Shown here: piece after piece, positions 8,170-62,999 of the stretch | Numbering within the stretch: the stretch's first letter is position 1 | Layout: every line of letters starts with the position of its first letter | Source: Rhytidiadelphus loreus | Lineage: Eukaryota > Streptophyta > Bryopsida > Hypnales > Hylocomiaceae | DNA: 64,000 bases | NCBI GenBank assembly: GCA_947034895.1 | Contig: OX344763.1 | Span: forward strand, 32,115,025-32,179,024 | Reading direction: 5' to 3' | Made by a program: the position numbers and the translations under genes | Notes under the pieces: generated by a model | Told to the model about the DNA's origin: nothing | The model's database searches: none | What the model saw: the letters and a program-made list of their open reading frames with translations, nothing else

Positions 8170-8210
8170 CACTCAATCTGAAACAAATACACAACGTAGA
8201 CCCTCTCAAA

Positions 8211-15039: not shown

Positions 15040-17696
15040 GTTTTCAATAGGTCATATAGAGATTGTTTAAGAACAATTTTTTTTTTTTTCTAGTTCATAA
15101 GTTCACATTGGATCATAAGAGTCCTTCAGAGTTGTGATGAATTGACTTTTATTGCTAATTTGAAAAAGGAAATTGAAGTTCACATTGGTGGAGATGCTCA
15201 ATTGTGTCCTCGTCAACTAGTCAATAGTTGAATGTCCATTGAAATTCATACAAGTAGGAAATATTATTTTGATTATCAAAAAATATTTGATAATTGAATA
15301 TTAGTATAAAGAAACTACTCCGTATTATTTTACCATAACAAAGAGCATTTTCTCACTTAATTTAGGTATTGTCTAATGGAGCACTACAATAGTATGTTCT
15401 AAAAGCGACCATTTAAGAGCTGGTTCGCCTTTTCCATAGGCTTCCATGGAAAAAATTATTTTTCAATCATTTTTCAGAGAAAGAAAAATAGATGTGGAAC
15501 CTAACACAAGTGGTTCTGTATTTTTCCAATCATTTTTGAATTAATTATAAATTTTCAAAGATTCTAGACATAGATACCTATTTGAGACCATAGGTCTCTC
15601 AAAATCCGTGCACTTGCAACTTCTAAAGAGATGTGCGGAAATCAAAGACAATGATTGGCTCTTGCAATAGAAAAACGATTTTTCGTCAATGCATTCAATT
15701 GCTACAGTGATCCACTTAAGGATCACCCCATCTCCATTCTCCACCTAAAAGTAGGAGTGATTTGAAGAAGACTTGGGCGCTTTTAGAGCATACAACCTTA
15801 TGGCTATGTACATTTATTCTCCTCTTTTACCATCATCCCTCTGCAATTGTTGATCCTATCTAGTTACCAATTAACCTCATTCTATATAAAAACAACATTA
15901 TGCGCAATCAGGAAGTTAAACTTTATAATTGTTTTTGAGATTTTTCTCCTGCTACTTTCACTTATCTCATTCAACAAATACGATGATTATTATGGGAGAT
16001 TAATCAAGTGTCAATCTATCTTTGGAAATGGGGTTATCAGTAACACTCATACATACACTTTGAGGGGTTGGTTTTCATGCGTAATGGTATTCCTTGAGAG
16101 CGCAACAGTTTTCATGTAGCTGCAAGAATATCGACATTCAACACTTGGGTGAGATAGTTTTCTTCCCAACAAGCTTGCCATATTCTTGAGAATGTTCACA
16201 TCCAATGCTTAGCTACTAATGTAACAAGTAAGATCAAGCCATCTTCGTGTGATTCATTTATCATTGCCTGTATTTTTGTTAAATTGTGAGGTTCATGTGC
16301 ACAAATCCATAGACAATGTTTGTTCATAGAGTCAATCTTCTGATTGATATATCAAAGTTTAGTATGTGTTGTTGGGTTCAATTGAATTGATGCTATTCAA
16401 TTTGATTGATCAAAGTTAAGCATGATTGTGTAGATAGGCTTAAGTTGATGCTATTCAATTTGGTCATGCAGACAAATCAATTTCAAGTCTAGTATCTGCA
16501 ATTTTAGTAAAGTTAGAGTGCAATATCGGTAGTTTCTTTGACAAGGTTATAGTACTGTTGCCATCAAATATGCATTAGAAGTTATTTAGAACTTACTGTA
16601 CCAATATTGTCAATGTTCAAAAATTCATGACAAAACTTTGATGAACTGAAAGCTGATATTTTGGTGGTCATTATTGATCAGAGTTGATGAAGCTACAGTT
16701 TGCAGTCTTTGCTCCAGAACCAAAGTTATTGATTCATGCACATGGAATATCATGTTCACCAAGCCTGCACAATTTCCACACATCAGAAGCTCATGGTATT
16801 TTTACACTATTGATTGTTTTCAAATCATCTCAGGTTGTGCTCTATCTTTAAATTGCAAATCACATTGACAGGAATAAATATCAACACATGATGATAAGGC
16901 ATCAACACCGGGCATGAAAGCTTGGAACCTTGATTGCTAAACCGTTGTCAATGGTTGCAGGTATGCTACAACTTGCAAACAATTTCAATAGCGATTATGC
17001 TACCGTACTTCAGAATACTTCTTTGAGTTCTGTGACTTCTGCCAAACTTGTTCAATAGCCAGCATGCCATGCCATAGAATCTCAATACAATTTGGAATTG
17101 TCAATCAAATGATAACACTCTACATAATGAGATAAAAAATTTCATTCATTTTTAGCAAAGTCTAAACATGTAAGTTGTGTTTGCTAATACCAACTTATGA
17201 TGCATTAATACGTACATGTAAATATAATCCTACAATTGTATCACCCAAATACTTGATTTAAGCATGTCTTATACAAATCACTATGAAGCAAAGTTAACAC
17301 AATAGTTGATAAAATCATCATTTCAATGTGTCACTAAGGAAGAAAACGAGGAGGCACTTTAAAAAACATTAGTTGAGACTCTACCCAGACAAGCCCGTAA
17401 AACAACATTGAAGTGAAAGCAAGAACTTGCAAAGAATCTTGTTGGGTGACCTCACAACCATTCGAAGGCCACCCTCTTTGTCACAAAATCAAGGAGGAAG
17501 AAGATGAAGATATATAATGGATTGAAGGGAATAAAAGGGAGGGGAACATATACTAATAGGTTTGATGGAGATTTGTGGCCACCTATTTATGTTGTTGTGA
17601 AAATACATTGCAACCTCTCTACTACTTTAAGATATTTGCAAGCATTTCATAGTCCTTACAACAAATTAAGCAAAGCTTGATCCTTTGCAGAATGGT
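15040..17696. repeat. Dispersed AT-rich repeat, copy 1 (paralogue of 35,590-39,560)
   Basis: The two copies start near AAGAACAATTTTTTTTT and share landmarks such as GCAAGAATAT, CAACTTGCAAACA and TTGATCCTTTGCA. There is no intact ORF. The distal end (about 17,690) forms the breakpoint that truncates HNL copy B. The two copies differ by a MITE here (15,391-15,794) and a CACTA element in the other copy. Confidence 0.65.
15391..15794. mobile_element. MITE of about 400 bp with GTATGTTCTAAAAGCG termini
   Basis: The left end AGTATGTTCTAAAAGCGACC and the right end CGCTTTTAGAGCATAC are inverted repeats. The paralogous repeat at about 35,905-35,930 lacks the insert (CTAATGGCAAAGTATG). The minus-strand 67-aa frame inside is not considered a gene. 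Exact boundaries and target duplication are uncertain by a few bases. Confidence 0.65.
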
Positions 17697-18881
17697 TCAC
17701 AAAGCAATTAGATACATGGCTCTCCACTTTTGTACCAACCTCAACCACATATCTATCCAAGACCTGCTTTAGACAATTAGTCAACCATAAGTAGCTAGAA
17801 TCCTTCTTGGTTTTGGGTCTCACAACATCAAAGTGATCATCACTCAAGGCAAGGTAGTCACCACCTTCAAATCTTGAAGATGCTTCTTCCACCACCATTT
17901 CACCACACTATCCAATATGACACAAATTTCTAAAATTAGTATATAAAGCTTGGATTATAAACTACGACTATTGATACCTAAATCACAACCATAGTCAACC
18001 TCAAAGAAACCAAAGTCAATGCAATCTAATAGAAACTTACAGATTTTGTTACATGAGTCTCAGTTGTTGATGCAAAATACCACAAGTGCTCCTTAGAAAC
18101 TTGCTCAAAGTTGTAGTTGAGGCGACTGATATCTGTGCTTGACACTTCCAAATTCTCCAAGGGATCCTTCCCACCACTCCCAAAGCTATAAAAATATGGT
18201 GAAGACTCAGCCAAATGTGATCCATGATGGGAGGTTGAATAAAACAAAATTGCCCTAATGTTCTTCAACAAACTTTGGGCCTTGGGGTCTTGTGAAAATT
18301 GATGCTTTGCACTTATAAAAATTTGCTTAGCCACCAAGCCACCAAACCCATGACACATAAACACCACTGGGACTCCATTCTGTCCAATTTGACCAAATCT
18401 CACCATTCCATGTACAAGCATCTCTCCTATAAGGAACAAGTCCATCCTTCCATTAGTGCCACTTTGTTGTATGTTGGCATTGTATTTCAGTGCAAACACT
18501 TTTGCAGAGGGGAACTCATCTGGGAGCCAAGTCATGGGCCAAATGTTGTTTGGTGTACCATCTTGAGCTAGCCAAGTCTTCCAATAGGCATCTCCACAAT
18601 TGTAGTGCTCCAATCCATGAACAAACACCACCTCCAATTGAACTGGTACTTTAGGTTGGTAGAATTGAAAGACAAAATCACACAACTGCATCCCAAACAC
18701 AAACAATGGAATCAAACCTCAAAAAACAAGGGCTTCCATAACATAGATTACAACTTTGCAAAATCAAATAAGACGCCAATGTCTATCAAATCTAATAACA
18801 TGTGCAAGATTTGTGATTACAAGCAAAGAACAAGCTTACCTTCTCTCCATAAGAAAGTTCACTCACTAATTCATCCATCAT
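17656..18881 (-). pseudogene. HNL copy B: hydrolase with truncated NB-ARC exon
   Basis: Exon 1 (18,881-18,840, MMDELVSELSYGEK) ends at AAG/GTAAGC. Exon 2 (18,685-18,041, 215 codons) is a complete hydrolase domain with VVFVHGLEHY, CHGFGG and STSHHGSH. Exon 3 (17,907-17,656) starts with CGEMVVEEASSRFEGG and matches the first 60 or so residues of the copy C NB-ARC exon. It then runs into a dispersed repeat and stops before the P-loop. All junctions are phase 0, so a hydrolase-only protein of about 312 aa could be made. The NB-ARC and LRR parts are absent and not found downstream. It is either a truncated pseudogene or an expressed short paralogue. The usual nucleophile Ser is Gly, as in copies A and C. 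Confidence 0.75.
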
Positions 18882-22190: not shown

Positions 22191-22215
22191 ACGCACCGGT
22201 CTCATAATTGAAAAT

Positions 22216-40171: not shown

Positions 40172-40240
40172 ACTTACATTTACAATTTTATTTATTTAGT
40201 TTTTGCTAGTTTTTTTCATTTGGTTTGTGAACTCAGAAGA

Positions 40241-40578
40241 CTTTAGAGTCCATTTAGGCATAGTAAAGCAACTTTTTTCAAATACTTTGAATTAAAAAAA
40301 GTTGAAAAATCAAGCTAATTTTCACCTCCAAAAATCCGTTTGTGATTTTGACTCTCCAATAAAAAATGATGAAAGAAATTTAGAGAGGATCTTTAAAAAT
40401 GTCAATTGAAAGAAAATGTCCATTCTAAATCCTCTCTGAACTTTGTTCATAACTTATGATTGGAGGGTCTAAATCTCAAATGGTTTTGAATGTGAAAGTT
40501 AGCTTGGTTTCCAAACTTTTATTTAGTTCAAAGCTTTTTGAATTTTTTTGTTTTACTATGCCTAAATGGACTTTGAAG
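40241..40578. mobile_element. Fold-back MITE, same family as 32,601
   Basis: The ends AGTCCATTTAGGCATAGTAA and TTACTATGCCTAAATGGACT type sequences are complementary. Internal AAAATCCGTTT and CCTCTCTGAA phrases match the other two copies. Confidence 0.75.
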
Positions 40579-43500
40579 TCTGATGAGTTTAAAAATCACC
40601 AAATTGTGAATGATTAAGTTAAAAAAATAAAATTCCATTGTACATAGAATTCTAACCTTGGTGATTTAACCCGTAAATGCCCAAGACTTTTGAAGTGTGT
40701 TTTGCCTATAAAAAAAGACTATGGGCTTATAGTTATCTCCAATGAAGCAAACAAAAATTTCTTCTAAATGTAACCATATAGATGTTAAAAGAGCTTGCTT
40801 ATTAGTGTATAATCCAATTTTGAGTGTGAAATTGCATAAGAGTTGTGAGATTATAACAAGAGAAATGTAATTATCCTATTTTTAGTATGCTACCCGTCCC
40901 CACTATATATGTTTAAGAAATTTGCATATAAGAATTTTTGGAGATTGGAGGTGATATAAACAACTAAAAATAGTGTTAGCACACTAAAATGCACTTTCAA
41001 AAACCTTAAATTCAAATGAAGAGCTATCAAACTCATTACACAATCCACCTTGCAAGTGTTGAAATGCAATTTTTTTTATAAGTAGAAATTGCAAATAACT
41101 CCAAATCAACACTTGCATGTTTAAATTTTCAATGGTGAAAATCTTGAAAACAATTTATTCTTTCCATTAGGATCATTTTCAAAGCAAATGGACATGTACA
41201 ATGTTTTAGATCTCAAATCAAGTGAAATTAGCAAATTTTGCTCAAAGTCCGGAAATGTAAAGTTGACAAGTTGTACTCTTCACTAATTGTAAAAACATGC
41301 GTTTGAGGCCCTATCAAAAAACAAATATTTCAATTTCAATTTCAAATTTCAATTTCACAAAGTCAAAAATTATATTTTTGGTGAATTTCTAAAGTCAATT
41401 TCCCTGGTTTTACAAAAAAAATTATTGAATACAATTGGTGATAGGTAGGGAACATCCATACACATATCTTTCATATTAAAAATCAAACCCTTAAGTAACA
41501 AAATTTTGATCAATGAAGAATTCAATGAAAAGTGCCATATGACCAAATTTTGAAGAAATGGATATCTCTACATTTTAACTTGATTTTGGCAAAGTAATTG
41601 TACCATCATGCTTGTATGTATGAAATTAGTTACCATGTGAGGTGCAAATAGAAAAATCTAATTATAGAAAAGAGATATCTATTTTACAACATTTTAGGCA
41701 TTGTCACTCAAATATGGAAATCTTTATAGAAGGAATTGTGAAACTCTTTTGGAGGTGCTTGTTGAAGGGAAGAGGTGCGTATGGATGTTCCCTACATATC
41801 TATGAAATCAAATTCAAAAAATTCATCACCAATTGTTCTCAATAAAATATTATGTTAAACCATGAAAACGAACATTAAAAATTCACTAAAAATGAATTCT
41901 GCTTTTTTTGAAACCGAAATTTGGTATGCTTGATTGGGATCGCATAAGGATGCAATGATAATTATGCTTACCAAAATATACCAATTATATTGCACATTGT
42001 ACAAAAAAATGTAAATGGCTCAAATTGGTTGGTTGTAAGCTTTTAGTACTTGACTGTATAGTAAGTTAAGTTTGCTTACATTGTTAGACTATTTAAGCTA
42101 AGAAGATTGGAGCATAATATAGTTTACATTAGATTCCATCAAAAGTTGAGCCTAGCTACCATATTGTGCCATACTAGCTATAGGAAAAGTCTACAGTTGC
42201 AATGGACTATTTCTAGTTAAAAACAACAACATTCACACTCATCATTATGAGGTATTTCTTTGTAACCATTGTATTTCATTTCATGGGCTCTTGCTCCATG
42301 TTAGAGGAGGAAGATCATTTTGGAACAAATTTATTGAGGCCAAATGGAAGATCGTTTTGGGATGGAGAGAGTAGTCTATAATTCTAAACTTATATGTGTT
42401 TGTTATAATAATTCTAATATTAATGACCTATTACCTTGATAAATAGTAAACCTTAAATTTTTAATGAGTAAAATTTTACTACTATACTATTAATAATCAA
42501 CCAATGTTTAAAATATAGGTTGGTAAATATTTGAAGATATTTAGAAAAGATAACAAAGATTCAATAATATAAAAAAAAAAAGCTCACTAATTGAATTTCC
42601 CTAGAAAGGAATGAATGAAAGCTAGAGTTTGAATGAAAATCCTTAGATCTATAAGGATGTTTTTATTTGTATTGACTCTTAGGATATGTTTAAGATACAT
42701 TTTTTCTAATTTGAAGATGCTCCTTTTCAACCATTCACATCTTTAGAAAAAAATTGTGTTCTTTGCACTTGCGTAAAGGTAGTGCACTTTTAGCACATGT
42801 GGAAGGTGGAAACTTTATTATTTTTAGAAAATCTCTTTGTAGGCTTTTGTAGCTTTAGTAGAAGTCCTTGTATCCCAATTTTCACCTTCAAATTTGCATT
42901 TTTGGTTCGAAAATAGTACTATAGAACACCACCACCTATGCAATGGCAAAGGTAGTCATCCAATTGAAAAAATAAATTTATGTCAACAACTACTATTGTA
43001 AGTACCTTCATTTCAAATTTCATATGAACCTGACATATGAAGCAAGAGTTATGAGGTAAAAACCACCTATTTCTAGCCGAGGGGACAAAAAAAAGACAAA
43101 TGTTTATAGCAATCACCTTTAAGGTAAGTGCCATGGGGCAACAATACTACTCATTGTATTGTCAAGTTGTTACATTGAGCAAGAGACAAAGCCCACTTCA
43201 TGTGTGCATACATGAATATAATCCACAAGAGGATAGTAAGGTGCCTATTTATGCTTGGCTTGGGCATGGCCAAGATATCATAGAGTTAAATTGATGACCA
43301 ATATTAATAACTACTTTACATGATGGTGCCTAAACAACAAAACTCCTAAATCATGTCTTGTTGCTATATTGTTTGGAAACAATTATGAATACAACATACT
43401 AGGTCTCTTTGTAGTCAATGTCCTTAAAGTTGTATGACATTGTAAACAATATTGAGTGTCCTTCAAATGACAAAAAGACAACAATTCAAGAGTATTCACC

Positions 43501-43776
43501 AACGCAACATAAGCAAGCTCAAGAGCTATGTAACCTTATTAGACAACTTGTAGAAGAGGGACATAGAACTTGGTTTAGACCACACTCTTGCCATCTATAT
43601 GCTAAATCAAAGTAAATGGCACTAAAGCAACAAATGCAAGAATTAAAAACCAATCACATTGTAACTCGATGGATTTATGGATTACTTTTCTATAGTAAGG
43701 ATCAGTCTCTATTGTGCTCTATTTGAGGCAATTGAAGAACATTCCTTCGGTCATAGCATGATTCACAAAGATCAAA
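40579..43776. other. AT-rich non-coding stretch with an old fold-back relic
   Basis: No gene is supported. About 41,410-41,960 is a diverged copy of the fold-back element seen at 23,600 and 62,280 (GTAGGGAACATCCATAC against GTATGGATGTTCCCTAC). The 65-aa plus frame at 43,418-43,615 is unrecognised and probably fortuitous. Confidence 0.45.
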
Positions 43777-45243
43777 CTAAAGGCAATGCCAACACTTGGT
43801 AGAGACCACCTTCAAGTTAGAACTATTACATCTAGCTTGATTAGAAGAACAATACTTTGTCAAGTATTTACCATGATATAATCTTCCATCAAGAAGTTGA
43901 ATTTCAGAGTGACAATGCTGTTGGAGCTCATGCAACAAAGAAACATAACTTGTCTTCATCCCAAAAATATCAAGTGTGACCAAGTTGACTAACTCGCCAA
44001 TGGAATTTGGCAGATTGATGAGATACTCACAATTCTAAAGGAAAAGCTTTGATAGCTTGACCAACTTGCCAATGGAATTTAGTAGACTTGTGAGCCTTTA
44101 CAGCTAGAAATATTAAATGTGGACAAGTTGACTAACTTGCCAATGGAATTTGGCAAAATTGTGAGACGATCACAATTGCAAAGGGAAAATTCTAATAACT
44201 TAACCAACTTGCCAATGGAGTTTGGTAGACTTGTGTGCCCCTAGCAAACAAGAAATACAAAGTGTGAAGAAGTTGACTAACTTGCCAATTGCATTTGGTA
44301 GACTTGTCAAACCGCTGACAATTCCAAAGGTAAAACTCTGATAGGTAGACCAATTTGTCAATGGAGATTGGTAGACTTGTGAGCCCATTACAACTAGAAA
44401 TATCAAGAATAGACAAGTTGACTAACTTGCCAATGGAATCTAATAGACTTATAATTGTCAATTTTAAAATAAAAGATTTCATACGTTGGCCAACTTGTTG
44501 ACCAAATTTCCAATGGAATTTGGTAGACTTGTAAAACCCTTGCAATCACAAATATCAAATTTCGATAAGTTGATCAAGTTGCCAATGGAATCGGGTAGAC
44601 TTGTAAGACCCTTGCAACCAGAAATATCAAGTGTGGGTAAGTTCATCAAGTTGCCAATGGAATCTGGTAGACTTGTAAGACCCTCGCAATTGGAAATATC
44701 AAGTATAGACAACTCGACCAAGTTACCAATGGAATTTGGTAGACTTGTAAGACCCTTGCAACCAGAAATATCAAGTGCAAACAACTTGACCAACTTCTTG
44801 AAGGAATCGGGTAGATTGGTGAGCCTCATGCAACTTGAAATATCAAATGTGGATAAGTAGATCAAATTGCCAATGGAATCTGGTAGACTTGTAAGACCCT
44901 TGCAACCAAAAATATCAAGTGTAGACAATTGGACCAAGTTGCAAATGCAATTTGGTAGACTTTTGAGTTGCTCACAATACTTAAGGGAAAATCTTGAAAG
45001 GTTCACCAACTTGTCAAAGGAATCGAGAAGATTGGTGAGCCCCGTGCATTTTGAAATATCAAGTGTAGATAAGTAGATCAAGTTGCCAATGGAATCTGGT
45101 AGACTTGTTAGACCCTTGGAACCAGAAATATCAAGTGTCGATAAATTCATCAAGTTGCCAATGGAATCTGGTAGACTTCTAAGACCCACGCAACCGAAAA
45201 TATCAAGTGTAGACAACTTGACCAAGTTGCCAATGGAGTTTGG
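43777..45243 (-). pseudogene. Decayed 3' continuation of the HNL copy C LRR array
   Basis: Downstream of the stop at 45,244-45,246, LRR repeats continue in the same frame to 44,479 (about ten units such as GLTSLPDSIGNL). Shifts and substitutions break the frame between 44,480 and 44,000. The last piece, in the original frame (43,983-43,777), turns from LRR into VTLDIFGMKTSYVSLLHELQ and a non-repeat tail ending in a stop. This looks like the ancestral C-terminus. It is probably no longer translated, because of the upstream stop. Confidence 0.75.
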
Positions 45244-48200
45244 TTACTTTGGTAGATTTTTGAACTTGTCACAATACTTAATGGAAAGTCTTGAAAGGTT
45301 GACCAACTTGTCAAAGGAATTGGGTAGATTGGTGAGCCCCGTGCAACTTGAAATATTAAGTGTGGATAAAAAGATCAAGTTGCCAATGGAATCGGGTAGA
45401 CTTGTAAGACCCTTGCAACCAGAAATATCAAGCGTAGACAACTTGACCATGTTGCCAATGGAATCTGGTAGACTTGTAAGACCCTCGCAGCCAGAAATAT
45501 CAAGTGTAGACAACTTGACCAAGTTGCCAATGCAATCTAGTAGACTTGTAAGACCCTTGCAACCAGAAATTTTAAGTCTAGACAACTTGACCAAGTTTCC
45601 AATGGAATCTGGTAGACTTGTAAGACCCTTGCAACCAGAAATATTAAGTGTAGACAACTTCATCAAGTTGCCAATGAAATCTGGTAGACTTGTAAGACCC
45701 ACGCAACCAGAAATATCAAGTGTAGACAACTTGACCAAGTTGCAAATGGAATTTGGTAGACTTGTCAGACCCTGGCAACCAGAAATATCAAGTGTAGACA
45801 ACTTCACCAAGTTGCCAATGGAATCTGGTAGTTTTGTAAGACCCTCGCAACCAGAAATATCAAGTGTAGACAACTTCACCAAGTTGCCAATGGAATCTGG
45901 TAGACTTGTAAGACCCTTGCAACTAGAAATACTAAGTGTAGACAACTTCACCAAATTGCCAATGGAATCTAGTAGACTTGTAAGACCCATGCAACCAGAA
46001 ATATCAAGTGTAGACAACTTCACCAAGTTGCCAATGGAGTTTGGTAGATTTTTGAGCTTGTCACAATACTTAATGGAAAGTTTTGAAAGGTTGACCAACT
46101 TGTCAAAGGAATTGGATAGATTGGTGAGCCCCGTGCAACTTGAAATCTTAAGTGTGGATAAAAAGATCAAGTTGCCAATGGAATCGGGTAGACTTGTAAG
46201 ACCCTCGCAATTGGAAATATCAAGTATAGACAACTCGACCAAGTTGCCAATGGAATTTGGTAGTTTTGTAAGACCCTCGCAACTAGAAATATCAAGTGTA
46301 GACAACTTGACCAAGTTGCCAATGGAATCTAGTAGACTTGTAAGGCCCACGCAACCAGAAATATGAAGTGTAGACAACTTCACCAAGTTGCCAATGGAAT
46401 CTGGTAGACTTGTAAGACCCACGCAACCAGAAATATCAAGTGTGGATAAAAAGATCAAGTTGCCGATGGAATCTGGTAGACTTGTAAGACCCTTGCAACC
46501 AGAAACATCAAGTGTGGATAAGTTCATCAAGTTGCCAATGGAATTTGGTAGTTTTGTAAGACCCTTGCAACCAAAAATATCAAGTGTAGACAACTTCACC
46601 AAGTTGCCAATGCAATCTAGTAGACTTGTAAGACCCTTGCAACCAGAAATTTTAAGTGTAGACAACTTGACCAAGTTGCCAATGGAATCTGGTAGACTTG
46701 TAAGACCCTTGCAACCAGAAATATTAAGTGTAGACAACTTTAACAAGTTGCCAATGGAATCTGGTAGACTTGTAAGACCCTTGCAACCAGAAATATCAAG
46801 TGTAGACAACTTGACCAAGTTGCCAATGGAATCGAGTAGACTTGTAAGACCCTTGCAACCAGAAATATTAAGTGTAGACAACTTCACCAAGTTGCCAATG
46901 GAATCTGGTAGACTTGTAAGACCCTCACAATACTTAATGGAAAGTCTTGAAAGGTTGACCAACTTGTCAAAGGAATTGGGTAGATTGGTGAGCCCCGTGC
47001 AACTTGAAATATTAAGTGTAGACAACTTCAGCAAGTTGCCAATGGAATCTGGTAGACTTGTAAGACCCTCACAATACTTAATGGAAAGTCTTGAAAGGTT
47101 GACCAACTTGTCAAAGGAATTGGGTAGATTGGTGAGCCCCGTGCAACTTGAAATATTAAGTGTAGACAACTTCACCAAGTTGCCAATGGAATCTGGTAGA
47201 CTTGTAAGACCCTCGCAACCAGAAATATGAAGTGTAGACAACTTGACCAAGTTGCCAATGGAATCCGGTAGACTTGTAAGACCCTCAGAATACTTAATGG
47301 AAAGTTTTGAAAGGTTGACCAACTTATCAAAAGAATTGGGTAGATTGATGAGCCCCGTGCAACTTGAAATATCAAGTGTGGATAAGTAGACCAAGTTTCC
47401 AATGGAATTTGGTAGACTTGTAAGACCCTCGCAATTGGAAATATCAAGTGTAGACAACTTGACCAAGTCGCCAATGGAATTTGGTAGACTTGTAAGACCT
47501 TGGCAACCAGAAATATCAAGTGTAGACAATTTCACCAAATTGCCAATGGAGTTTGGTAGATTTTTGAGCTTGTCACAATACTTAATGGAAAGTCTTGAAA
47601 GGTTGACCAACTTGTCAAAGGAATCGGGTAGACTTGCAAGACCCTTGCAACCAAAAATATCAAGTGTAGACAACTTCACCAAGTTGCCAATGGAGTTTGG
47701 TAGATTTTTGAGCTTGTCACAATACTTAATGGAAAGTCTTGAAAGGTTGACCAACTTGTCAAAGGAATTGGGTAGATTGGTGAGCCCCGTGCAACTTGAA
47801 ATATTAAGTGTAGACAACTTCACCAAGTTGCCAATGGAATCTGGTAGACTTGTAAGACCCTCGCAACCAGAAATATGAAGTGTAGACAACTTGACCAAGT
47901 TGCCAATGGAATCCGGTAGACTTGTAAGACCCTCAGAATACTTAATGGAAAGTTTTGAAAGGTTGACCAACTTATCAAAAGAATTGGGTAGATTGATGAG
48001 CCCCGTGCAACTTGAAATATTAAGTGTGGATAAAATGATCAAGTTGCCAATGGAATCGGGTAGACATGTAAGACCCTTGCAACCAGAAATATCAAGTGTA
48101 GGCAACTTCACAAAGTTGCCAATGGAGTTTGGTAGATTTTTGAGCTTGTCACAATACTTAATGGAAAGTCTTGAAAGGTTGACCAACTTGTCAAAGGAAT

Positions 48201-51200
48201 TGGGTAGATTGGTGAGCCCCGTGCAACTTGAAATATTAAGTGTGGATAAAAAGATCAAGTTGCCAATGGAATCGGGTAGACTTGTAAGACCCTTGCAACC
48301 AGAAATATCAAGCGTAGACAACTTGACCATGTTGCCAATGGAATCTGGTAGACTTGTAAAACCCTCACAATACTTAATGGAAAGTCTTGAAAGGTTGACC
48401 AACTTGTCAAAGGAATTGGGTAGATTGGTGAGCCCCGTGCAACTTGAAATATCAAGTGTGGATAAGTAGACCAAGTTTCCAATGGAATTTGGTAGACTTG
48501 TAAGACCCTTGCAACCAGAAATATCAAGCGTAGACAACTTGACCATGTTGCCAATGGAATCTGGTAGACTTGTAAAACCCTCACAATACTTAATGGAAAG
48601 TCTTGAAAGGTTGACCAACTTGTCAAAGGAATTGGGTAGATTGATGAGCCCCGTGCAACTTGAAATATCAAGTGTGGATAAGTAGACCAAGTTTCCAATG
48701 GAATTTGGTAGACTTGTAAGATCCTTGCAACCAGAAATATGAAGTGTAGACAACTTGACCAAGTTGCAAATGGAATCGAGTAGACTTGTAAGACCCTTGC
48801 AACCAGAAATATCAAGCGTAGACAACTTGACCAAGTTGCCAATGGAATCTGGTAGACTTGTAAAACCCTCACAATACAGAATGGAAAGTCTTGAAAGGTT
48901 GACCAACTTGTCAAAGGAATTGGGTAGATTGGTGAGCCTCGTGCAACTTGAAATATCAAGTGTGGATAAGTAGACCAAGTTTCCAATGGAATTTGGTAGA
49001 CTTGTAAGACCCTCGCAATTGGAAATATCAAGTGTAGACAACTTGACCAAGTCGCCAATGGAATTTGGTAGACTTGTAAGACCTTGGCAACCAGAAATAT
49101 CAAGTGTAGACAACTTCACCAAGTTGCCAATGGAGTTTGGTAGATTTTTGAGCTTGTCACAATATTTAATGGAAAGTCTTGAAAGGTTGACCAACTTGTC
49201 AAAGGAATTGGGTAGATTGGTGAGCCCCGTGCAACTTGAAATATTAAGTGTGGATAAAAAGATCAAGTTGCCAATGGAATCTGATAGACTTGTAAGACCC
49301 TCGCATTTGGAAATATCAAGTGTAGACAACTTGACCAGATTGCCAATGGAATCTGGTAGATTTGTAAGACCCTGGCAACCAGAAATATTAAGTGTAGACA
49401 ACTTCACCAAGTTGCCAATGGAATCTGGTAGACTTGTAAGACCCTCGCAACCAGAAATATTAAGGGTAGACAACTTCACCAAGTTGCCAATGGAATTTGG
49501 TAGACTTGTAAGACCCTTGCAACCAGAAATATCAAGCGTAGACAACTTGACCAAGTTGCCAATGGAATCTGGTAGACTTGTAAAACCCTCACAATACTTA
49601 ATGGAAAGTCTTGAAAGGTTGACCAACTTGTCAAAGGAATTGGGTAGATTGGTGAGCCCCGTGCAACTTGAAATATTAAGTGTAGACAACTTCACCAAGT
49701 TGCCAATGGAATCTGGTAGACTTGTAAGACCCTCGCAGCCAGAAATATCAAGTGTAGACAACTTGACCAAGTCGCCAATGGAATTTGGTAGACTTGTAAG
49801 ACCCTTGCAACCAGAAATATCAAGCGTAGACAACTTGACCAAGTTGCCAATGGAATCTGGTAGACTTGTAAAACCCTCACAATACAGAATGGAAAGTCTT
49901 GAAAGGTTGACCAACTTGTCAAAGGAATTGGGTAGATTGGTGAGCCCCGTGCAACTTGAAATATCAAGTGTGGATAAGTAGACCAAGTTTCCAATGGAAT
50001 TTGGTAGACTTGTAAGACCCTCGCAATTGGAAATATCAAGTGTAGACAACTTGACCAAGTCGCCAATGGAATTTGGTAGACTTGTAAGACCTTGGCAACC
50101 AGAAATATCAAGTGTAGACAACTTCACCAAGTTGCCAATGGAGTTTGGTAGATTTTTGAGCTTGTCACAATATTTAATGGAAAGTCTTGAAAGGTTGACC
50201 AACTTGTCAAAGGAATTGGGTAGATTGGTGAGCCCCGTGCAACTTGAAATATTAAGTGTGGATAAAAAGATCAAGTTGCCAATGGAATCTGATAGACTTG
50301 TAAGACCCTCGCATTTGGAAATATCAAGTGTAGACAACTTGACCAGATTGCCAATGGAATCTGGTAGATTTGTAAGACCCTGGCAACCAGAAATATTAAG
50401 TGTAGACAACTTCACCAAGTTGCCAATGGAATCTGGTAGACTTGTAAGACCCTCGCAACCAGAAATATTAAGGGTAGACAACTTCACCAAGTTGCCAATG
50501 GAATTTGGTAGACTTGTAAGACCCTTGCAACCAGAAATATCAAGCGTAGACAACTTGACCAAGTTGCCAATGGAATCTGGTAGACTTGTAAAACCCTCAC
50601 AATACTTAATGGAAAGTCTTGAAAGGTTGACCAACTTGTCAAAGGAATTGGGTAGATTGGTGAGCCCCGTGCAACTTGAAATATTAAGTGTAGACAACTT
50701 CACCAAGTTGCCAATGGAATCTGGTAGACTTGTAAGACCCTCGCAGCCAGAAATATCAAGTGTAGACAACTTGACCAAGTCGCCAATGGAATTTGGTAGA
50801 CTTGTAAGACCCTTGCAACCAGAAATATCAAGCGTAGACAACTTGACCAAGTTGCCAATGGAATCTGGTAGACTTGTAAAACCCTCACAATACAGAATGG
50901 AAAGTCTTGAAAGGTTGACCAACTTGTCAAAGGAATTGGGTAGATTGGTGAGCCCCGTGCAACTTGAAATATCAAGTGTGGATAAGTAGACCAAGTTTCC
51001 AATGGAATTTGGTAGACTTGTAAGACCCTCGCAATTGGAAATATCAAGTGTAGACAACTTGACCAAGTCGCCAATGGAATTTGGTAGACTTGTAAGACCT
51101 TGGCAACCAGAAATATCAAGTGTAGACAACTTCACCAAGTTGCCAATGGAGTTTGGTAGATTTTTGAGCTTGTCACAATACAGAATGGAAAGTCTTGAAA

Positions 51201-54200
51201 GGTTGACCAACTTGTCAAAGGAATCGGGTAGACTTGTAAGACCCTTACAACCAAAAATATCAAGTGTAGACAACTTCACAAAGTTGCCAATGGAGTTTGC
51301 TAGATTTTTGAACTTGTCACAATACTTAATGGAAAGTCTTGAAAGGTTGACCAACTTGTCAAAGGAATTGGGTAGATTGGTGAGCCCCGTGCAACTTGAA
51401 ATATTAAGTGTGGATAAAAAGATCAAGTTGCCAATGGAATCTGATAGACTTGTAAGACCCTCGCATTTGGAAATATCAAGTGTAGACAACTTGACCAAAT
51501 TGCCAATGGAATCTGGTAGACTTGTAAGACCCTGGCAACCAGAAATATCAAGTGTAGACAACTTCACCAAGTTGCCAATGGAATCTGGTAGACTTGTAAG
51601 ACCCTCACAATACAGTATGGAAAGTCTTGAAAGGTTGACCAACTTGTCAAAGGAATTGGGTAGATTGGTGAGCCCCGTGCAACTTGAAATATTAAGTGTA
51701 GACAACTTCACCAAGTTGCCAATGGAATCTGGTAGACTTGTAAGACCCTTGCCACCAGAAATATTAAGTGTAGACAACTTCACCAAGTTGCCAATGGAAT
51801 CTGGTAGTTTTGTAAGACCCTCGCAACCAGAAATATCATGTATTGGCCACTTGATGAAGTTGCCAATGGAGTGTGGTTGACTTCTAAGTCTTTGATGATT
51901 CATAATCGCAGATCTTAAATGTAGAATTTCGAGCCTCTTTTGCAAAGAAATGTCAAGAATGGATAAGTTGACTAAGTTGCCAATAGAATCTGGTAGACTT
52001 GTCAGCCTCTGGCAATTAGAAATATCAAGTCTAGACAACTTGAGTAACTTGCCAATGGAGTTTGGAAGACTTGTGAGCCTTTTACAACCAGAAAGATTAA
52101 GGTTGGTTAAATGAATCATATCACCAAGGGAATTAGGTAGACTCATAAGGTTCACACAATCTGAAAGATTGAGCTCTAGTAAGTTGACCAAGTTTTCAAT
52201 GGACTCACCAAGGTCCTTCAAGAACCTACAATTTCTCATGTCCAGAACACATAACAAATTACAAAATCGCACAAACCTCGGCATTTCAGAGATATCAATT
52301 CCCTTCAAACAAAGCCATTGAATACGTGAATAACCCTTGATATGAATAGCTTCAATAGCATTCTCTTCCACTTTGTGAAGGTTTAACAACCTCATTGCGA
52401 GACAATCCAAACTAAAACCCTTTTGATTGCGAGTCTTTTGGCTTTTTGAAATCCCACTTGGTTTACCTTCCATAATGGAAGTTGATAATACACCCCATTC
52501 CTCCAATGACAAACCTTGTATCCGTGGAGCTATTACCTGACACCAATAAAGAGAAAAAATTACATAACTAGAATAAAAACTTACAAGTGATGTTGAAAGT
52601 TAAAAAACATAGAATAACTTCAATCAACAAATCATATGGTATAGAACTACCTCAATGCTTTGCAGAAGATTTTTCACATCCTTGGAGTCCCATAATCTAG
52701 TCATCTCACTTAAATCTCTTTTACAATCACGGCGTACAACACGGCGACCCATATCACGCAATTGGTCATGCATGATTACAGTGCCATCTTTTTCATTGAT
52801 CTTGATCAAACATCTCTCCTTCAAATTTCTAAACTCAACCTTTTTAGAAAGTTCACCTCCCCATATTCGTAACAAAGTTTGTTCACCATATCGCACGGAA
52901 TCACAAAAGAAACATGCAATATCCAAAAACATGCTCTTTTCATTATCATCTAAGCAATCATAGCTTATTTGCAACACCTTCCAAAGAATATCATTGTCAA
53001 CTCCTCCTTCCAAAGGCTCAGCCTTCTTCAACTTTTCCAAAGCCCCTCCACAACAATCTAAGCAATCTTTGCTCGAGAGATCGCCATCCCTTAGGAAACC
53101 ACCCAAGCAACAACCCATCACTTCAAGGCTTAATGGAAGTCCACTACAAGCCTTCACAACTTGATCACACATGCTTTCAAACTCATCAATCATACTTTCT
53201 GAGGAGTCCTTTGATAAAAAGCCTAGTAGTTTTTGACGCCTTTCCCCAAGAGTTCTAGTTCCCTTCAATGCATGATAAAGAAACAATTCAATATCTTGGC
53301 CTGACCTCATAGGCTCCACCTCATATTTGCCACTCCCTTGTACATGATCCTTCAATACTTGCCAATTTCTACACGTGACAATTACTTTAGACTCCCTGTT
53401 TCCATTCAAGAAATCCATGTCTTTCAACAAACATGCAAAGTTCTCTTTTGTCCCCACATCATCCACAACCACCAATACTTTATATTGCTTCACATATGTC
53501 TTCAAATCTTCCAACAAACTCTTCTTGCAATCTTGCAAGGCACTTCGCTCTACAATACAACCAGTATTTTTGTCCTTAATTCCAAAATTTTGGAGTAGTG
53601 TTATCAACACTTCATCCAAGCTTGCTTTTGATTTTACGTCGTCCAAATAGCAACTCTTCTCAAAATCTTTGTGTGCAGATTGGTACACAGCTTTTGCCAA
53701 TGTTGTCTTTCCAATACCTCCCATCCCAACCAATCCTACAATAGATACTTCTTGTAGTTTCTTCTTCAAGGTATTCTCTTGTACCTCCAATCTCACAAAG
53801 CTATCAGGTACAAGGCTCTCCACTTGTGGAGCAAGCTGAATTGCATGTTTATCCAAGACCTCCTTCAAACAATTAGTCAACCACAAGTAGCTAGAATCCT
53901 TCTTGGTTTTGGGTCTCACAACATCAAAGTGATCATCATTCAAAGCAAGGTAATTACCACCTTCATATCTTGAAGATGCTTCTTCCACCACCATTTCACC
54001 ATACTATCCAATATGACACAAATTTCACTTATTAGTATACGAAGCAAGGATAACAAATATAGACCATTGAAACCAAAATCACAACTATACTTAACTTGAA
54101 AGAAATCAAAGCAAGTATGATCTAGCAATGACTTACTGGTTTTGTTACATGTGTCTCAGCTGCTGATGCAAAATACCATGAGTGCTCCTTAGCAATTCGT

Positions 54201-54978
54201 TCAAAGTCTTGGTTGAGGCGACTAATATCTATGCTTAACACTTTGGAATTCTCCCATAAGGGACCCTTTCTATCCACCCCAAAGCTATCAAGATATGATG
54301 AAGACTGAGCTTGATGTGATCCATGATGGGGTGTGGAATAAAACAAAATGGCCCCAATATTCTTCAATAGCTTTTGAGGCTCAGGGTCTTGTGAAAAACG
54401 ATGCTTTGCACTTATAACAATTTGTTTAGCCATCAAACCACCAAAACCATGACACACAAACACCACTGGGACTCCATTTTGTCCAATTTGACCAAATCTC
54501 ACCATTTCTTGTACAAGCTTTTCTCCTATAAGAAACAAGTCCATCCTTCCATCAGTGGCAGTTTGCATTATGCTGGCATCGTACTTTAGTGCAAAGATTT
54601 CTGCGGAGGAGAATTCATCCGGGAGCCATGTCATGGGCCAAATGTTGTCAAGTGTACCATCTCGAGCTAGCCAAGTCTTCCAATATGCATCTCCATCATT
54701 GTGATTATCCAATCCATGAACAAATACCACCTCCAATTGATTTGGTACTTTAGGTTGGTAGAACCGAAAGACAGAATCACACAACTACATATCCAAATAC
54801 AAACAATGGATCAAACCTTAGAAAAAAAAGGGCTTCCATAAAATAGACTACAACATGGCATAATCAAATAAGGTGTCAAAGCCTATCAAATCTATGAACA
54901 TGTACAAGATTTGAGAGTAGAAGCAATAAACAAGCTAACCTTTTCTCCATGAGAAAGTTTGCTGACTTTTTTTCCCAT
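45244..54978 (-). CDS. Giant hydrolase-NB-ARC-LRR (HNL) immune-receptor-like gene, copy C
   Basis: There are four exons, all junctions in phase 0. E1 54,978-54,940 encodes MGKKVSKLSHGEK. E2 54,784-54,137 (216 aa) is a SERAC1/PGAP1-like alpha/beta hydrolase with VVFVHGL, VVFVCHGFGG and YSTPHHGSH. E3 54,003-52,651 (451 aa) is the NB-ARC: P-loop GMGGIGKTT (protein residues 322-330), kinase-2 LVVVDDV (406-412), GLPL (517-520) and MHD (640-642). E4 52,536-45,244 has a short linker, then about 97 LRRs of 24 residues. Splice sites: AAG/GTTAGC, CCA/GTAAGT, GAG/GTAGTT; acceptors ATGTAG, GGATAG, GTGTCAG. The product is about 3,110 aa, far above the roughly 900-1,500 typical of plant NLRs. All nucleotide-binding motifs look intact. 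The hydrolase nucleophile is Gly. A TAA inside the array ends the frame. The role as an intracellular immune receptor is inferred from the family. Confidence 0.88.
45247..52227 (-). repeat. LRR-coding tandem array, about 97 units of 72 bp
   Basis: The 72-bp unit encodes GLTSLPDSIGNLVKLSTLDI plus SGC(K/E/Q). Two unit classes are mixed. One has D/NSIGNL(V)KLSTLDISGC. The other has NSFDKLVNLSRLSIKYC, preceded by SSCTGLTNLP, and recurs every three to five units. Near-identical units show recent expansion. Only the first few (before about 51,860) are diverged, as expected for older N-terminal repeats. Confidence 0.92.
48986..51001 (-). repeat. Two tandem 1,008-bp higher-order units (14 LRRs each)
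   Basis: Positions 48,986-49,993 and 49,994-51,001 are essentially identical over their full length; all six-frame translations match. The match continues about 170 bp into 51,002 onward. A partly similar start also occurs at 47,402, which is 22 units (1,584 bp) away. 1,008 is exactly 14 x 72, so the LRR frame and phase are kept. Confidence 0.93.
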
Positions 54979-57450
54979 TCTATATCTTACAATGATAATT
55001 ACACATACCAATGTCCCCTTCACATGAGTGGCTTGTGTATCCTACAAAACATGGTTTACAAATAAGCACAAGGTGCCATTCCATGAGTTGAATCCATGAC
55101 TTTATACCAAGCTTAGTTGCCTTTATTTCTACAAGCTCAAAAATGATCAATTATTTCAACGATAGGATTCATACAACTACATTGAAAAATATGCACATTG
55201 AAAAATAAATGATTTAGGTTTCCTTCAAACATTGCCTAGAGCCATTGCTCAAACATCATGAAAAGACATAGCCTAGACTACCTCTCATTTGTGCTTGGGA
55301 TGTTGATGCTTCACAAGTTAACCTACATTTTCAAATTGAAGCCCCGAAATACGGAACTCAACAAAACCTACTTTTCTTTAAAGAGAATTAATTTTGTATC
55401 AAAGATAGTTTACATCACATGACTAAAGGAAACCTAAGCACATAAATCTAGACTTAAACCTAAAAATATTAAAACTTAGAGCAAATTATCTCTAAAAATT
55501 ATGAACAAAAAAAGGAAAAGGAAAAATGCCAAGAAAATGGACATTCAAATATTTGATTTTCAGAAAATAGTATAAGGAAATTTTTATTAATTTTTTTAAA
55601 TCCATTTTTTTGCTAATTTGAAGGTGCTTGTTTTCAACTATTTTCATCTTTAGGGGAAAAAAAATTGTGTTCTCTACATTTGTGCAAATGTAGTGCACTT
55701 TGAGCACATGTGTAACATGGACAATTTGGAATTACTTTTCAATGCAAATTCAACATACTAGGCTTGTGATTTACATGTTAAAATCTAGCTTTCCAACAAT
55801 CTAGCTTAACAATTCAAATGTGCATCATAGTATGAAGTAAATTTTCCATGCAACATCCCACACATAATAAATCAAAAGATTGACCAACATTGGTTTACAA
55901 CTTGAAAAATAAATTGTAACAAGAAAATACTACAATTTCCACTTGACATGTTTCCTACACCACCCTCCACAATCAATGCCCAAAACATATTCAAACCAAT
56001 CATATTAGAAAGTGATAATACCTTCAATTGCAAGCCAAGTTTGTGCTAGCATTGCCTCTAAAGCAAACTTTGTCTTCTCCAAAAAGTCCTTGTTCTTCAA
56101 TGAGAGTTAGACATCGTTCAAAAACAACCACTCTCAATAGAAAGACTAATTGGCCACCATTTAGTGAAGTTGGCCTTAGTCGTACACTTGGTTGAACTCT
56201 AGCCTTGAAGTTGTAGTGCCCGACCCATACTCATGAACACGCTCTTTCTTCTACAACTTGCTAAATTGAGCATAAAAACATACTTTTCTTAAGATTTGTC
56301 ACAAATCTCACACTCGTCCAACAAAAAGATCTTGGGTGGAAAACCAACAAATGACAAGCTCAACCAAGTACTCACTTAAATTAGGTCATCACAATGTGGC
56401 TTACTATTGTACTCTATACAAATTTTGGTGCTAACCCCAATTTTAATTGCCTTAAATTTTACTCAACAACTAAAACTTCTCACAAAGATATTAAGTATCA
56501 ACAATAATGTAACAAGTCTACACCAACAAAAAAACTCTAACTCGTACATGAGAAGCTAGCCATAGACATTAGACAAGAGAACATGCACAACTAGAATTAT
56601 TCAAAATCCAAGCAACAAAAACATAGCATCAAATTCAACTCACCGTTCCTAAATGAATGCTCTCCAAAATCACTTCTATCCATAAATGACCAAAGATTCA
56701 TGGTTTGAAAATGATCAAGTCCATTGATCCTATTGTGTAAACAAAATTGATATAGGGCATGATTTTATATCACTTGAGTTAGTGAAGAGCATTGCAAGAG
56801 TTGATGAAAAATATAATAAAATCAAACAAAAGAAAGTCCCTAATATGATGTAATCAAAACTACTAGAGAAAATAAGAGATGCAATATGGAGCTTTTGGTG
56901 ATTAAGGCGCTAAACAATGGTATTTCAACAACAAAGACCTTTACAAAAAGAGTTGATTAACACTAGGTAAGATCCAATTACCACCAAGGAATTTTAGAGC
57001 CATGACAACCCAATACAAGTTTAAATCTTTGGCCCTAGATGGAATTGAAGGGCATGAAAACTAATACTTATTGGTTACAAAGCACACACAACCGATGAAG
57101 GATTAAGGGATGTAGAGATTCACCTTGTAATTCACTTCTCTCAAGACTTGCATTCTCTTTAAAACTCTAACAACATCCTTCTTGGTGCTCCTAGAATTCT
57201 CACTCATGTACAACGCCCTCCAAATCTCTGTGTGCCAAAATACATCAATAAACACCAACATTGTGGAGTCTCATAACAACAAAGCTTCTCATTCTATGAT
57301 GGACAATCCACACAAGAAACTTAAATCACAATTCTCTCTCAAGATTTCTCTTGAATCTCTCACCCATTTAGCACAAAGAATATTACACAGCCAACCAACA
57401 AATGACCTGAAAATGGCCTCTAAATTGACATGATATGATCACCAACAAGA
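54979..57450. promoter_or_regulatory. 5' flank and putative promoter of HNL copy C
   Basis: Non-coding. It is paralogous to 9,164-11,655 over its full length with scattered small indels. The minus-strand transcript should start here. I see no single motif strong enough to name a TATA box. Conservation between A and C reflects duplication, so it does not prove function. Confidence 0.4.
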
Positions 57451-59280
57451 ATCAAGCTATGCGTACTTGTTATGCATAGCAAGCACGTCAAGCTCTTCCT
57501 CTCAGCTGAATGTGGATCGCCACTGTGCTGTACAGTGAAACCCTCGTTTTGCATAAGGCAGCCCTCGTCACAACTCCACGGAGCCCCGGAGCCCTGACTG
57601 AACATCAACCGCCACCCAGCAGACAGGATCGGAAGACGAAACCAAGGCTTACTGGAGCGCCCCCGGCATCGTCACTCGGAAACCCTTGTCGGTACACAGG
57701 AGCTCCAGGGATATCGCTGCCACCTTCAACACCACAGTGAAAGAAAAAAAACTTGGAGCCTGCGGATGAGTGTCTGTGCACCTGATGCAGTGGATACAAA
57801 GCACTTCGCACTTAGTCTGGAATCTCGACTCCCATATTCACAAGTTCAATGTTCCGGTCTCTCCCGGAGTTGCAGACGCGCGCAAAGTAGTGGCATTTTC
57901 TGAGAGAGACGTGGTGCAAAAAGGAGGAAGAAGAACAGTGTTCAAAGCGCGTCAAACTGGCACGCGGAAAACTGGTAGATGAGCTGTCCTCGGTGGCACG
58001 TTCGCACGGTCAAGGGTTGTCAGAGCGACTGTAGTAGCTAACATCTAACCGACCATTGTGGCCAATGTCTCGCGGAAGACGCTGCAGGGCAAGTGGACTC
58101 CCGGAATCCAGGCTTGTTTCACCGAACAGTGTTTCCATCCAAACAAGATGCGCGCACATCAATTATTAGTCAGTTGGGGGTGTCAGAGTTCGAGAAGTGG
58201 CAGTGGGTCCGTCGTGGTTTGGGTCCACGATTAGGCCGGCTTTGCAGGACCTGCTACGTGGACATGTAGGGAGCCCTCCCGATTGAAACCTGGCTTGCGA
58301 AAAAGTTTGGCGAAGCAAGCTTTTACTTACAAACTCAGGGAAAAATCATTTGCGAGCAAACTCTTTACGAACCAGTTTTCACAAGTTTTGTGCACCAGTA
58401 ATTCGAATCATGTTTCCAAGAAGACTGTAATGTATCCAGTATATATTACTACTTTCTCTCTCTCCGTGTGAGGATAGAAATCTCAGTAAAAGCTCCCGGC
58501 AATCAGAGTCAAACAGTAGCATATACTGGATCCACGTTGCACCACAATCGCAATTTTGAGCGACAACCGGTTGATAGCTGCCTCCCTTTTTGAAATCCCC
58601 CACCAGAATCTCGGATGCAAACCTAAACTCTAATCCCATTAATGGCCCGTGGTCTGTCGGGTTTCGTAGTTGACTCATAGAATCCGAATTATGTTTTTAC
58701 CCCAGAACGCCGCAGCGGCCAATTATCAGCGAATCGATGACTTTGTGAGGGCCTCACTGTTGGACAAAAAAATTGTCCCTGGTGGCAAAGAACAAAGAAT
58801 CAAGTCGTACTTGTTACGCATATCAAGCTCTTCCTATAAGCTGAATGTGGATCGAAGCTGGACGCCACTGTTCTGTACAGTGAAACCCTCTTTGTGTACA
58901 GTGAAACCCTCGTTCTCGATGATGGTGCGAGAGTGGTGTGCCGATTTTTGTGAATCTTGTTTTCCCTAAACATCCAGAGTAACCCTCACTCCTAATTAGA
59001 AACTTTTTGGAACCAGATCATATTTTCACCAGCAGATGATTATCTCGCTATCAAGGTTTTCCAAGGATTGCCGTCTCCTATCCAGAAATCTGCGATTCTC
59101 AACCAGTGATAGTGTCCGGAAACACGCACCTGTCTCATAATTGAAAATTGTAGAATTGGGGTTCATGTTTGGGGATTTGATGTTTGAGTGTGTGTATATT
59201 AATTGGTAGCTGCCTCCTTTCTTTCCGAATGATTAGAGTTTGGATTTTGAAATTCCAGGTTAGTAAAGTGTTCCAATAAA
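57451..59280 (+). repeat. GC-richer repeated segment R1, copy C
   Basis: Starts at GAATCAAGCTATGCGTACTT. It has the same decayed plus-strand remnants as copies A and B (KAYWSAPGIVTRKP, LMQWIQSTSHLVW). A 99-codon frame (58,670-58,969) contains NYQRIDDFVRASLLD, VPGGKEQRIKSYLLRI and NVDRSWTPLF. It is the best preserved version of that segment but is still not a recognisable domain. Confidence 0.55.
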
Positions 59281-61545: not shown

Positions 61546-61684
61546 AGTTTCCAAAAAAACCCAAACTCCATTTGCAGTTGGAAATTGGTGTGCTTGATCA
61601 AGATTGCATAAAAATGCAATGGTGTAGGAGTTGCTTAAGAATTGTGTAAGGTTGAGTTTGAAAATGGGGTGTATGTATGGAATA

Positions 61685-62113: not shown

Positions 62114-62279
62114 TAATACAAAATGGGGTCTTAAATTTTTGGTACCCCATTGTACGGTACAAGCATGGTCTACAATAAAATTGGATCCAATAATCTTATA
62201 AATGGTCTATTGTGCCATTCAATTTTTTTTGCATAATATAGAATACAATTGACATTTTTTTCTCTTACATAATAAACAT

Positions 62280-62905: not shown

Positions 62906-62999
62906 TTATGCAAACCAAAAAGAAAAGTCAATTGTATTTTGTATTATGCAGGAAAAAAAATTGAATGGCACAATAGGCAACTTGTAAGATTATCATACC

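What the first reader, a model, noticed from the sequence alone, without database searches (positions are those of the whole stretch)
45244..54978. A giant hydrolase-NB-ARC-LRR protein of about 3,110 residues with about 97 LRRs
All four exons join in phase 0 with consensus splice sites, and the NB-ARC motifs (P-loop, kinase-2, GLPL, MHD) are intact. The single LRR exon is 7.3 kb. Plant NLRs usually carry roughly 10-40 LRRs, so about 97 near-identical 24-residue units is exceptional and would form several superhelical turns. HNLs are a known but little-studied class; this size is, to my knowledge, undescribed.
Basis: partly seen in the sequence, partly recalled or inferred. Interest (0 to 1): 0.9.

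Follow-up and report, generated by a model that had tools for sequence, protein, structure and literature searches.

The report
Giant hydrolase-type plant immune receptor gene
This stretch of a plant genome, probably a moss or liverwort, holds a gene for an unusually long immune receptor whose sensing arm has about 97 repeats, and its enzyme-like front end appears to have lost the one residue it would need to work as an enzyme.

Summary
On the minus strand, 54978 to 45244, four GT/AG exons join in phase 0 to encode about 3,110 residues: a DUF676 alpha/beta-hydrolase domain, an NB-ARC with its motifs, and about 97 LRRs, 90 of them gapless 24-residue units. It is best read as a hydrolase-NB-ARC-LRR (HNL) receptor whose LRR exon grew by unequal recombination.

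Corrections and additions. (1) Units are not near-identical: mean pairwise identity is 0.79 (DNA) and 0.70 (protein), in three types, two of which always stand together. One 14-unit block is a perfect tandem copy. (2) The ORF ends inside an LRR, at a stop in a 9-nt insertion. The array continues in frame for 254 codons, then breaks up, so the ORF is a shortened longer array. (3) The catalytic serine is glycine in 3 of 3 window copies but serine in 6 of 6 bacterial relatives aligned: probably a pseudohydrolase. (4) Two hydrolase-only paralogues lie in the window.

"Undescribed size" is overstated: plant NLR LRR domains up to 3,400 aa are published (PMC9585916), though mainly CNL/NL. Expression, assembly accuracy and host could not be tested.

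The parts
54940..54978 (-). Exon 1, start codon and first 13 residues
   Evidence: Splice search, phase 0; same exon in paralogue C and similar in B
54137..54784 (-). Exon 2, most of the alpha/beta-hydrolase domain (aa 14-229)
   Evidence: PF05057 DUF676 26.1 bits against cut-off 20.3
54446..54448 (-). Codon 126, Gly at the place of the catalytic Ser (CHGFGG)
   Evidence: Gly in 3 of 3 window copies, Ser in 6 of 6 bacterial relatives aligned
53929..53931 (-). Codon 254, conserved His of the hydrolase domain
   Evidence: His in 8 of 8 sequences that cover the column
52651..54003 (-). Exon 3: end of hydrolase domain, NB-ARC, winged helix
   Evidence: NB-ARC at aa 307-528, WHD_ROQ1 at aa 579-654; alternative donor after 52648 adds one residue
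53107..53772 (-). NB-ARC Pfam match (P-loop 53701-53727)
   Evidence: 77.9 bits, motifs
52765..52773 (-). MHD motif
45244..52536 (-). Exon 4, single LRR exon ending in TAA
   Evidence: LRR_14 E 6.1e-304
51787..52191 (-). First, irregular LRRs, one with extra residues
   Evidence: read by eye
45307..51786 (-). 90 gapless 24-residue LRR units (72 bp each)
48940..51180 (-). Tandem copy of a 14-unit (1,008-bp) block with a 1,233-nt perfect match at offset 1,008
45239..45253 (-). In-frame 9-nt insertion relative to a sister unit, carrying the stop 45244-45246 (edges ambiguous within this range)
44479..45243 (-). Array continues in the same frame behind the stop, 254 codons with 10 complete LRR units
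43965..44478 (-). Decayed end of the array, LRR pieces spread over all three frames with stops
17656..18881 (-). Paralogue B: three-exon hydrolase-only ORF, 312 aa
8536..9163 (-). Paralogue C: exon 1 and part of exon 2, broken off

Best explanation
This is an HNL-type NLR gene of a land plant, by inference a bryophyte. Its LRR exon was expanded to about 97 units by repeated unequal recombination of multi-unit blocks, and the array was once longer. It most likely works as other NLRs do. The NB-ARC is an ADP/ATP switch. The first LRRs hold it closed, and the long LRR solenoid is the recognition surface. On binding, the receptor opens and oligomerises its N-terminal domains. The N-terminal domain keeps the alpha/beta-hydrolase sequence pattern but lacks the nucleophile, so it probably signals or binds without serine-esterase catalysis, or serves a sensor that works with a partner. 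Shown here: gene structure as an open model, domains, array anatomy, loss of the serine, pN/pS below 1. Inferred: expression, switch behaviour, recognition role, non-catalytic signalling.
For: Open four-exon phase-0 model. NB-ARC, WHD and DUF676 above Pfam cut-offs, motifs present. No stop and no length change in 90 units. pN/pS is 0.63 in the coding frame against 0.76-1.63 in the five other frames (89 units). On a minimum tree of the 57 unit types omega is 0.49 at core positions and 1.02 at the exposed xxLxLxx positions, and the chance of no nonsense among 190 neutral substitutions (a lower bound) is 0.003. Block structure: identity by lag (1-49) peaks at 14 units; c and B units always stand together. 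Active-site Gly in 3 of 3 window copies, Ser in 6 of 6 bacterial relatives. Exon 2 dN/dS is 0.32-0.48 between copies. Nearest solved NB-ARC by sequence is Roq1, in line with the published HNL/PNL/TNL grouping. Two Marchantia hydrolase domains gave cell-death-like responses in N. benthamiana (PMC11218826 passages).
Against: No transcript data. The protein ends inside an LRR at a stop in an insertion, with no cap that I could see, which is what a damaged gene looks like. Purifying selection on the units is weak (0.60, 0.63, 0.73, 0.78 by four counts), the three antisense frames also fall below 1 (0.76-0.89), and exon 3 shared by A and B gives dN/dS 0.72. A 14-unit block is perfectly duplicated, so the unit number may be off. 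No plant HNL sequence could be aligned: the protein database was switched off and the genome search was unreachable.
Confidence: 0.6

Rival explanations
1. A recent pseudogene or relic: the receptor lost its real C-terminus through the stop-bearing insertion, the tail is decaying, and the long ORF persists only because stop-free units keep copying themselves.
For: Stop inside an LRR; 10 complete units still in frame behind it with omega 0.55 against nearest ORF units; beyond 44479 the frame breaks repeatedly; two broken or shortened paralogues in the window.
Against: No stop or frame break in exons 1-3 or in the 7.3 kb of exon 4. Solenoid proteins tolerate C-terminal shortening (general knowledge); Tsw also has an incomplete last repeat (PMC9585916 passages). 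Absence of nonsense has p 0.003 under neutrality.
Confidence: 0.25
2. The unit number is an assembly artefact: a shorter array was expanded (or a longer one collapsed) by mis-joining of repeats.
For: 1,233-nt perfect match at offset 1,008 bp, against silent divergence pS 0.098 between hydrolase copies A and C.
Against: Removing one 14-unit copy leaves about 83 LRRs, and removing all 19 consecutive units that match at 0.95 or more at that lag leaves about 78. No other lag from 1 to 49 gives a run of more than 5 units at 0.95, although single units often have near-perfect counterparts elsewhere (nearest-unit means 0.95-1.00). The array with its tail is about 8.2 kb, within one long read.
Confidence: 0.15
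3. The LRR exon is a separate gene or unspliced neighbour, not joined to the hydrolase-NB-ARC.
For: No cDNA, and no paralogue in the window covers this junction.
Against: Intron 3 is short (114 nt), GT/AG and phase 0, at the NBS/LRR boundary where HNL, PNL and TNL genes have a phase-0 intron (PMC3352924 section 13). By eye, exon 4 begins with a linker of NB-ARC-LRR type rather than a start region.
Confidence: 0.03

Closest known systems
HNL class (alpha/beta-hydrolase-NBS-LRR; Hyd-NLR) of liverworts and some mosses (PMC3352924, PMC11218826)
   Same: Domain order, two phase-0 introns before and one behind the NBS, NB-ARC nearest a TNL among solved structures
   Different: About 97 LRRs, catalytic Ser replaced by Gly (state in other HNLs not known to me), ORF ending inside an LRR. 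By my alignment intron 2 lies inside the hydrolase domain and intron 1 at residue 13; the published figure with exact places was not held
Rps11, giant soybean NLR (PMC8571336, abstract and passages)
   Same: LRR enlarged by tandem duplication and unequal recombination, in a cluster with truncated relatives
   Different: 2,463 aa, angiosperm; no hydrolase domain mentioned in the passages seen; resistance shown by transformation
Tsw of Capsicum (PMC9585916, abstract and passages)
   Same: Core LRRs followed by near-identical multi-LRR blocks (7 blocks of 6), incomplete last repeat
   Different: CNL, 57 LRRs; a known resistance gene
Bacterial DUF676-like hydrolases in AAA_35, TPR and ABC-three-component proteins (L001-L006)
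   Same: 23-29% identity over the aligned hydrolase domain; same HG, H-[S/G]-x-G-G and DH positions
   Different: All 6 aligned keep Ser; other partner domains (4 of 6 scanned)

Membership tests
HNL (hydrolase-NBS-LRR) | N-terminal alpha/beta-hydrolase domain | tested here: met
   DUF676 26.1 bits, cut-off 20.3; aligns with bacterial hydrolases
HNL (hydrolase-NBS-LRR) | NB-ARC followed by LRRs in one protein | tested here: met
   In the predicted gene model; no cDNA
HNL (hydrolase-NBS-LRR) | Three phase-0 introns, two before and one behind the NBS | tested here: met
   against PMC3352924 sections 8 and 13
HNL (hydrolase-NBS-LRR) | Exact places: one intron within the hydrolase domain, one between it and the NBS | tested here: inconclusive
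   Introns at residues 13 and 229; the conserved His254 lies behind intron 2, so that intron is within the domain and none lies between domain end and NBS; the figure was not held
HNL (hydrolase-NBS-LRR) | NB-ARC falls in the HNL clade of a tree | not tested
   No plant HNL sequences could be fetched (genome search did not complete)
Active serine alpha/beta-hydrolase | Ser nucleophile in the H-S-x-G-G elbow | tested here: not met
   Gly126
Large-LRR NLRs (1,000 aa or more of LRR, 30 or more repeats) | LRR length and repeat number | tested here: met
   About 2,300 aa, about 97 repeats; criterion from PMC9585916
Functional NLR | Expressed; switch and cell-death activity | not testable with these tools
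   No cDNA or assay

The most novel reading that the evidence does not exclude
A pseudohydrolase NLR that works as a multivalent reader. 21 copies of an obligate two-LRR dyad (c-B), set at intervals of 2 to 12 LRRs along a long solenoid, bind a polymeric or repetitive ligand, with array length tuned by recombination and trimmed by the stop. The dead hydrolase serves as a platform or decoy rather than an executioner.
Probability: 0.08. Interest if true: 0.8.

Novelty: new variant of a known kind. Interest (0 to 1): 0.5.

Why it matters
Large-LRR NLRs are an open puzzle: contacts with the rest of the receptor use mainly the first LRRs, so the purpose of dozens more is unexplained (PMC9585916). 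This case adds an extreme from the hydrolase class and a readable growth record: blocks, a perfect new copy, and an abandoned tail. A class member without its nucleophile makes a clean question testable: does the hydrolase domain of these receptors signal by catalysis or as a scaffold?

Tried and rejected
The hydrolase exon folded alone gave pLDDT 34 and was not used. The 50-unit LRR model (pLDDT 76, pTM 0.40) matched LRR proteins in the PDB, but with TM-scores of 0.09-0.23 by query length in the 50 rows shown, so I draw no geometry from it. Scans of bacterial genome contigs and viral contigs with the three-copy alignment gave no relative. The PDB sequence search with the hydrolase domain gave one hit at E = 1, an unrelated binding protein; NCBIfam gave nothing; PADLOC gave one model, DUF626_VIII, E 7.7e-10, which I could not interpret. 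No tRNA and no Rfam family at gathering scores in the window.

Rejected: chance ORF, separate LRR gene (phase-0 intron at the class position), and 'near-identical units'.

Full report
What is there. The minus strand from 54978 to 45244 carries a four-exon gene. In short stretches around the boundaries there are 4 combinations of GT/AG sites; 2 of 4 stay open to the end. They differ by one codon at the exon 3 donor and give 3,110 or 3,111 residues; all three introns are phase 0. Residue numbers here follow the 3,111 version; the donor giving 3,110 (CATTGAG|GTAGTT) looks the better one by eye. Pfam finds DUF676, a putative serine esterase of alpha/beta-hydrolase type (26.1 bits on exon 2 alone, cut-off 20.3), NB-ARC (77.9 bits), a Roq1-type winged helix and LRRs. 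[quoted passage not shown] The nearest solved NB-ARC by sequence is Roq1, a TIR-NLR (PMC9585916 passages).

The array. After about six irregular LRRs (counted by eye) come 90 units of exactly 24 residues without an insertion or deletion, then 20 residues of a 91st. That makes about 97 LRRs. The units are not near-identical: mean pairwise identity is 0.79 in DNA and 0.70 in protein, with 57 distinct DNA units among 90. They fall into three types. By string tests, 21 end in FDK ('c') and 20 start LVNLSR/KLS ('B'), with 49 others. All 20 B units follow a c, and the 21st c is followed by the truncated B at the end of the protein. Random placement gives a mean of 4.7 such pairs and never more than 11 in 10,000 draws; block copying of units would raise that mean, so this is not a test of function. 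The c units are 2 to 12 units apart. Identity by lag (1-49 tested) peaks at 14 units. A block of 1,008 bp is tandemly doubled with a perfect match of 1,233 nt at that offset (48940-50172 against 49948-51180). This fits growth by unequal recombination of multi-LRR blocks, as published for Rps11 and seen in the blocks of Tsw. It also means one block could be an assembly artefact; without it about 83 LRRs remain, or about 78 if all 19 units that match at 0.95 or more at that lag are dropped.

The end. The stop at 45244-45246 sits in a 9-nt insertion relative to a sister unit, inside an LRR. The same frame stays open behind it for 254 codons (44479-45243), with 10 complete LRR units that are 83-99% identical to their nearest ORF unit. 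Then LRR pieces appear in all three frames with stops, down to about 43965. So the ORF is a shortened form of a longer array, and the tail has been decaying. I saw no C-terminal domain, but looked for one only by eye in the translations around 42000-44500.

Selection. Pairwise pN/pS among units is 0.60 (90 units), or 0.63 with another count on 89 units. The other five frames give 0.88, 1.63, 0.77, 0.89 and 0.76 and hold 10 to 232 stops, against none in the coding frame. On a minimum spanning tree of the 57 unit types (190 substitutions, a lower bound) omega is 0.73: 0.49 at core positions, 1.02 at the xxLxLxx exposed positions and 0.67 elsewhere. Under neutrality, no nonsense change among 190 has probability 0.003. 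Nearest-neighbour comparison gives 0.78. Constraint is therefore present but weak; horizontally spreading protein repeats in general show relaxed purifying selection (PMC5120217, abstract and passages). The tail gives 0.55 (22 silent, 37 replacement), so it was probably translated until recently. These counts ignore recombination between units.

The hydrolase domain. tblastn within the window found two more copies. B (18881-17656) is a three-exon ORF of 312 aa with introns 1 and 2 at the same places and in phase 0; its likeness to the giant gene stops at residue 299, before the NB-ARC. C (9163-8536) breaks off within exon 2. Exon 2 dN/dS between copies is 0.48 (A-C), 0.39 (A-B) and 0.32 (B-C); for the short shared part of exon 3 it is 0.72 (A-B). 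tblastn against plasmids found 17 records with distant relatives. I fetched 6 of the 17. Pfam on 4 of these 6 shows an AAA_35 protein of Nostoc with an N-terminal hydrolase match, a hydrolase-TPR protein, an ABC-three-component protein and a hydrolase without a named partner domain. Aligned, all 6 have Ser at the nucleophile elbow, while all 3 window copies have Gly126. The His at 254 is kept in all 8 sequences that reach it. That the Ser of this elbow is the nucleophile is established knowledge of alpha/beta-hydrolases, not a test here. The simplest reading is a pseudohydrolase shared by this gene group; the three window copies are close relatives, so they count as one event. Whether other HNLs have the Ser could not be tested. 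Searches looked for catalytic residues together with NLR and moss or bryophyte terms; among the papers listed (12 of 70, and 6 of 6) I saw none whose title or abstract start reports it, but opened only some of them.

Setting. The window has large duplications around these copies: 8538-12665 against 54352-58463 at 91.6%, 17697-18867 against 53793-54967 at 84%, and 22214-23432 against 60468-61684 at 98.7%. Tandem and broken copies are usual in NLR clusters (general knowledge).

How it works. By the general NLR model (established knowledge), ligand binding to the LRRs frees the NB-ARC switch, and oligomerised N-terminal domains signal. In PMC11218826 (passages) two Marchantia hydrolase domains gave cell-death-like responses and ion leakage in Nicotiana benthamiana. 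If that signalling needs a nucleophile, this gene cannot do it alone and would be a sensor or platform; if not, the loss is neutral. I favour non-catalytic signalling or a sensor role. This is inference.

Compared with the known. It meets the HNL definition in domains, intron number, phase and side of the NBS (PMC3352924); exact intron places and tree placement are open. By size it belongs with the large-LRR NLRs. PMC9585916 (abstract and passages) reports LRR domains up to 3,400 aa, mainly CNL and NL, with few TNLs over 1,000 aa. So about 2,300 aa of LRR is extreme but not beyond the published range. For hydrolase-NLRs I found no report of such a size in search listings or in the passages opened of PMC3352924, PMC11218826, PMC12512272, PMC7145615 and PMC9825502. 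Supplements were not open to me.

Limits. There is no transcript, no second genome and no named host; the protein database was off and the genome search unreachable.

Noticed in passing
17656-18881 (-): Hydrolase-only three-exon ORF (312 aa), a paralogue of the giant gene's N-terminal domain; open frame, dN/dS 0.39 in exon 2. Could be a stand-alone signalling partner or a truncated receptor.
   Followed up: partly
8538-12665 and 54352-58463: 4.2-kb duplicated segment (91.6%) covering the upstream region and first exons of the gene, with more duplicated pieces at 22214-23432/60468-61684 (98.7%) and 25417-25921/63494-64000 (94.9%).
   Followed up: partly
29493-31280 (-): 595-codon open frame with DDE_1 and Tc5-type HTH transposase domains.
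   Followed up: no
33530-34021, 32597-32928, 40221-40598, 62190-62993: Stretches matching their own reverse complement at 70-85%, like long inverted-repeat (MITE-type) elements.
   Followed up: no
6052-8172 (-): A possible plant gene with a weak RING match (below cut-off), directly behind the broken hydrolase copy C; a 99-bp unit repeated three times lies at 6915-7213.
   Followed up: no
L001-L006 (plasmid records): The hydrolase domain's bacterial relatives sit in AAA_35, TPR and ABC-three-component proteins, which may hint at an old link between this hydrolase and ATPase-based defence-like systems.
   Followed up: partly
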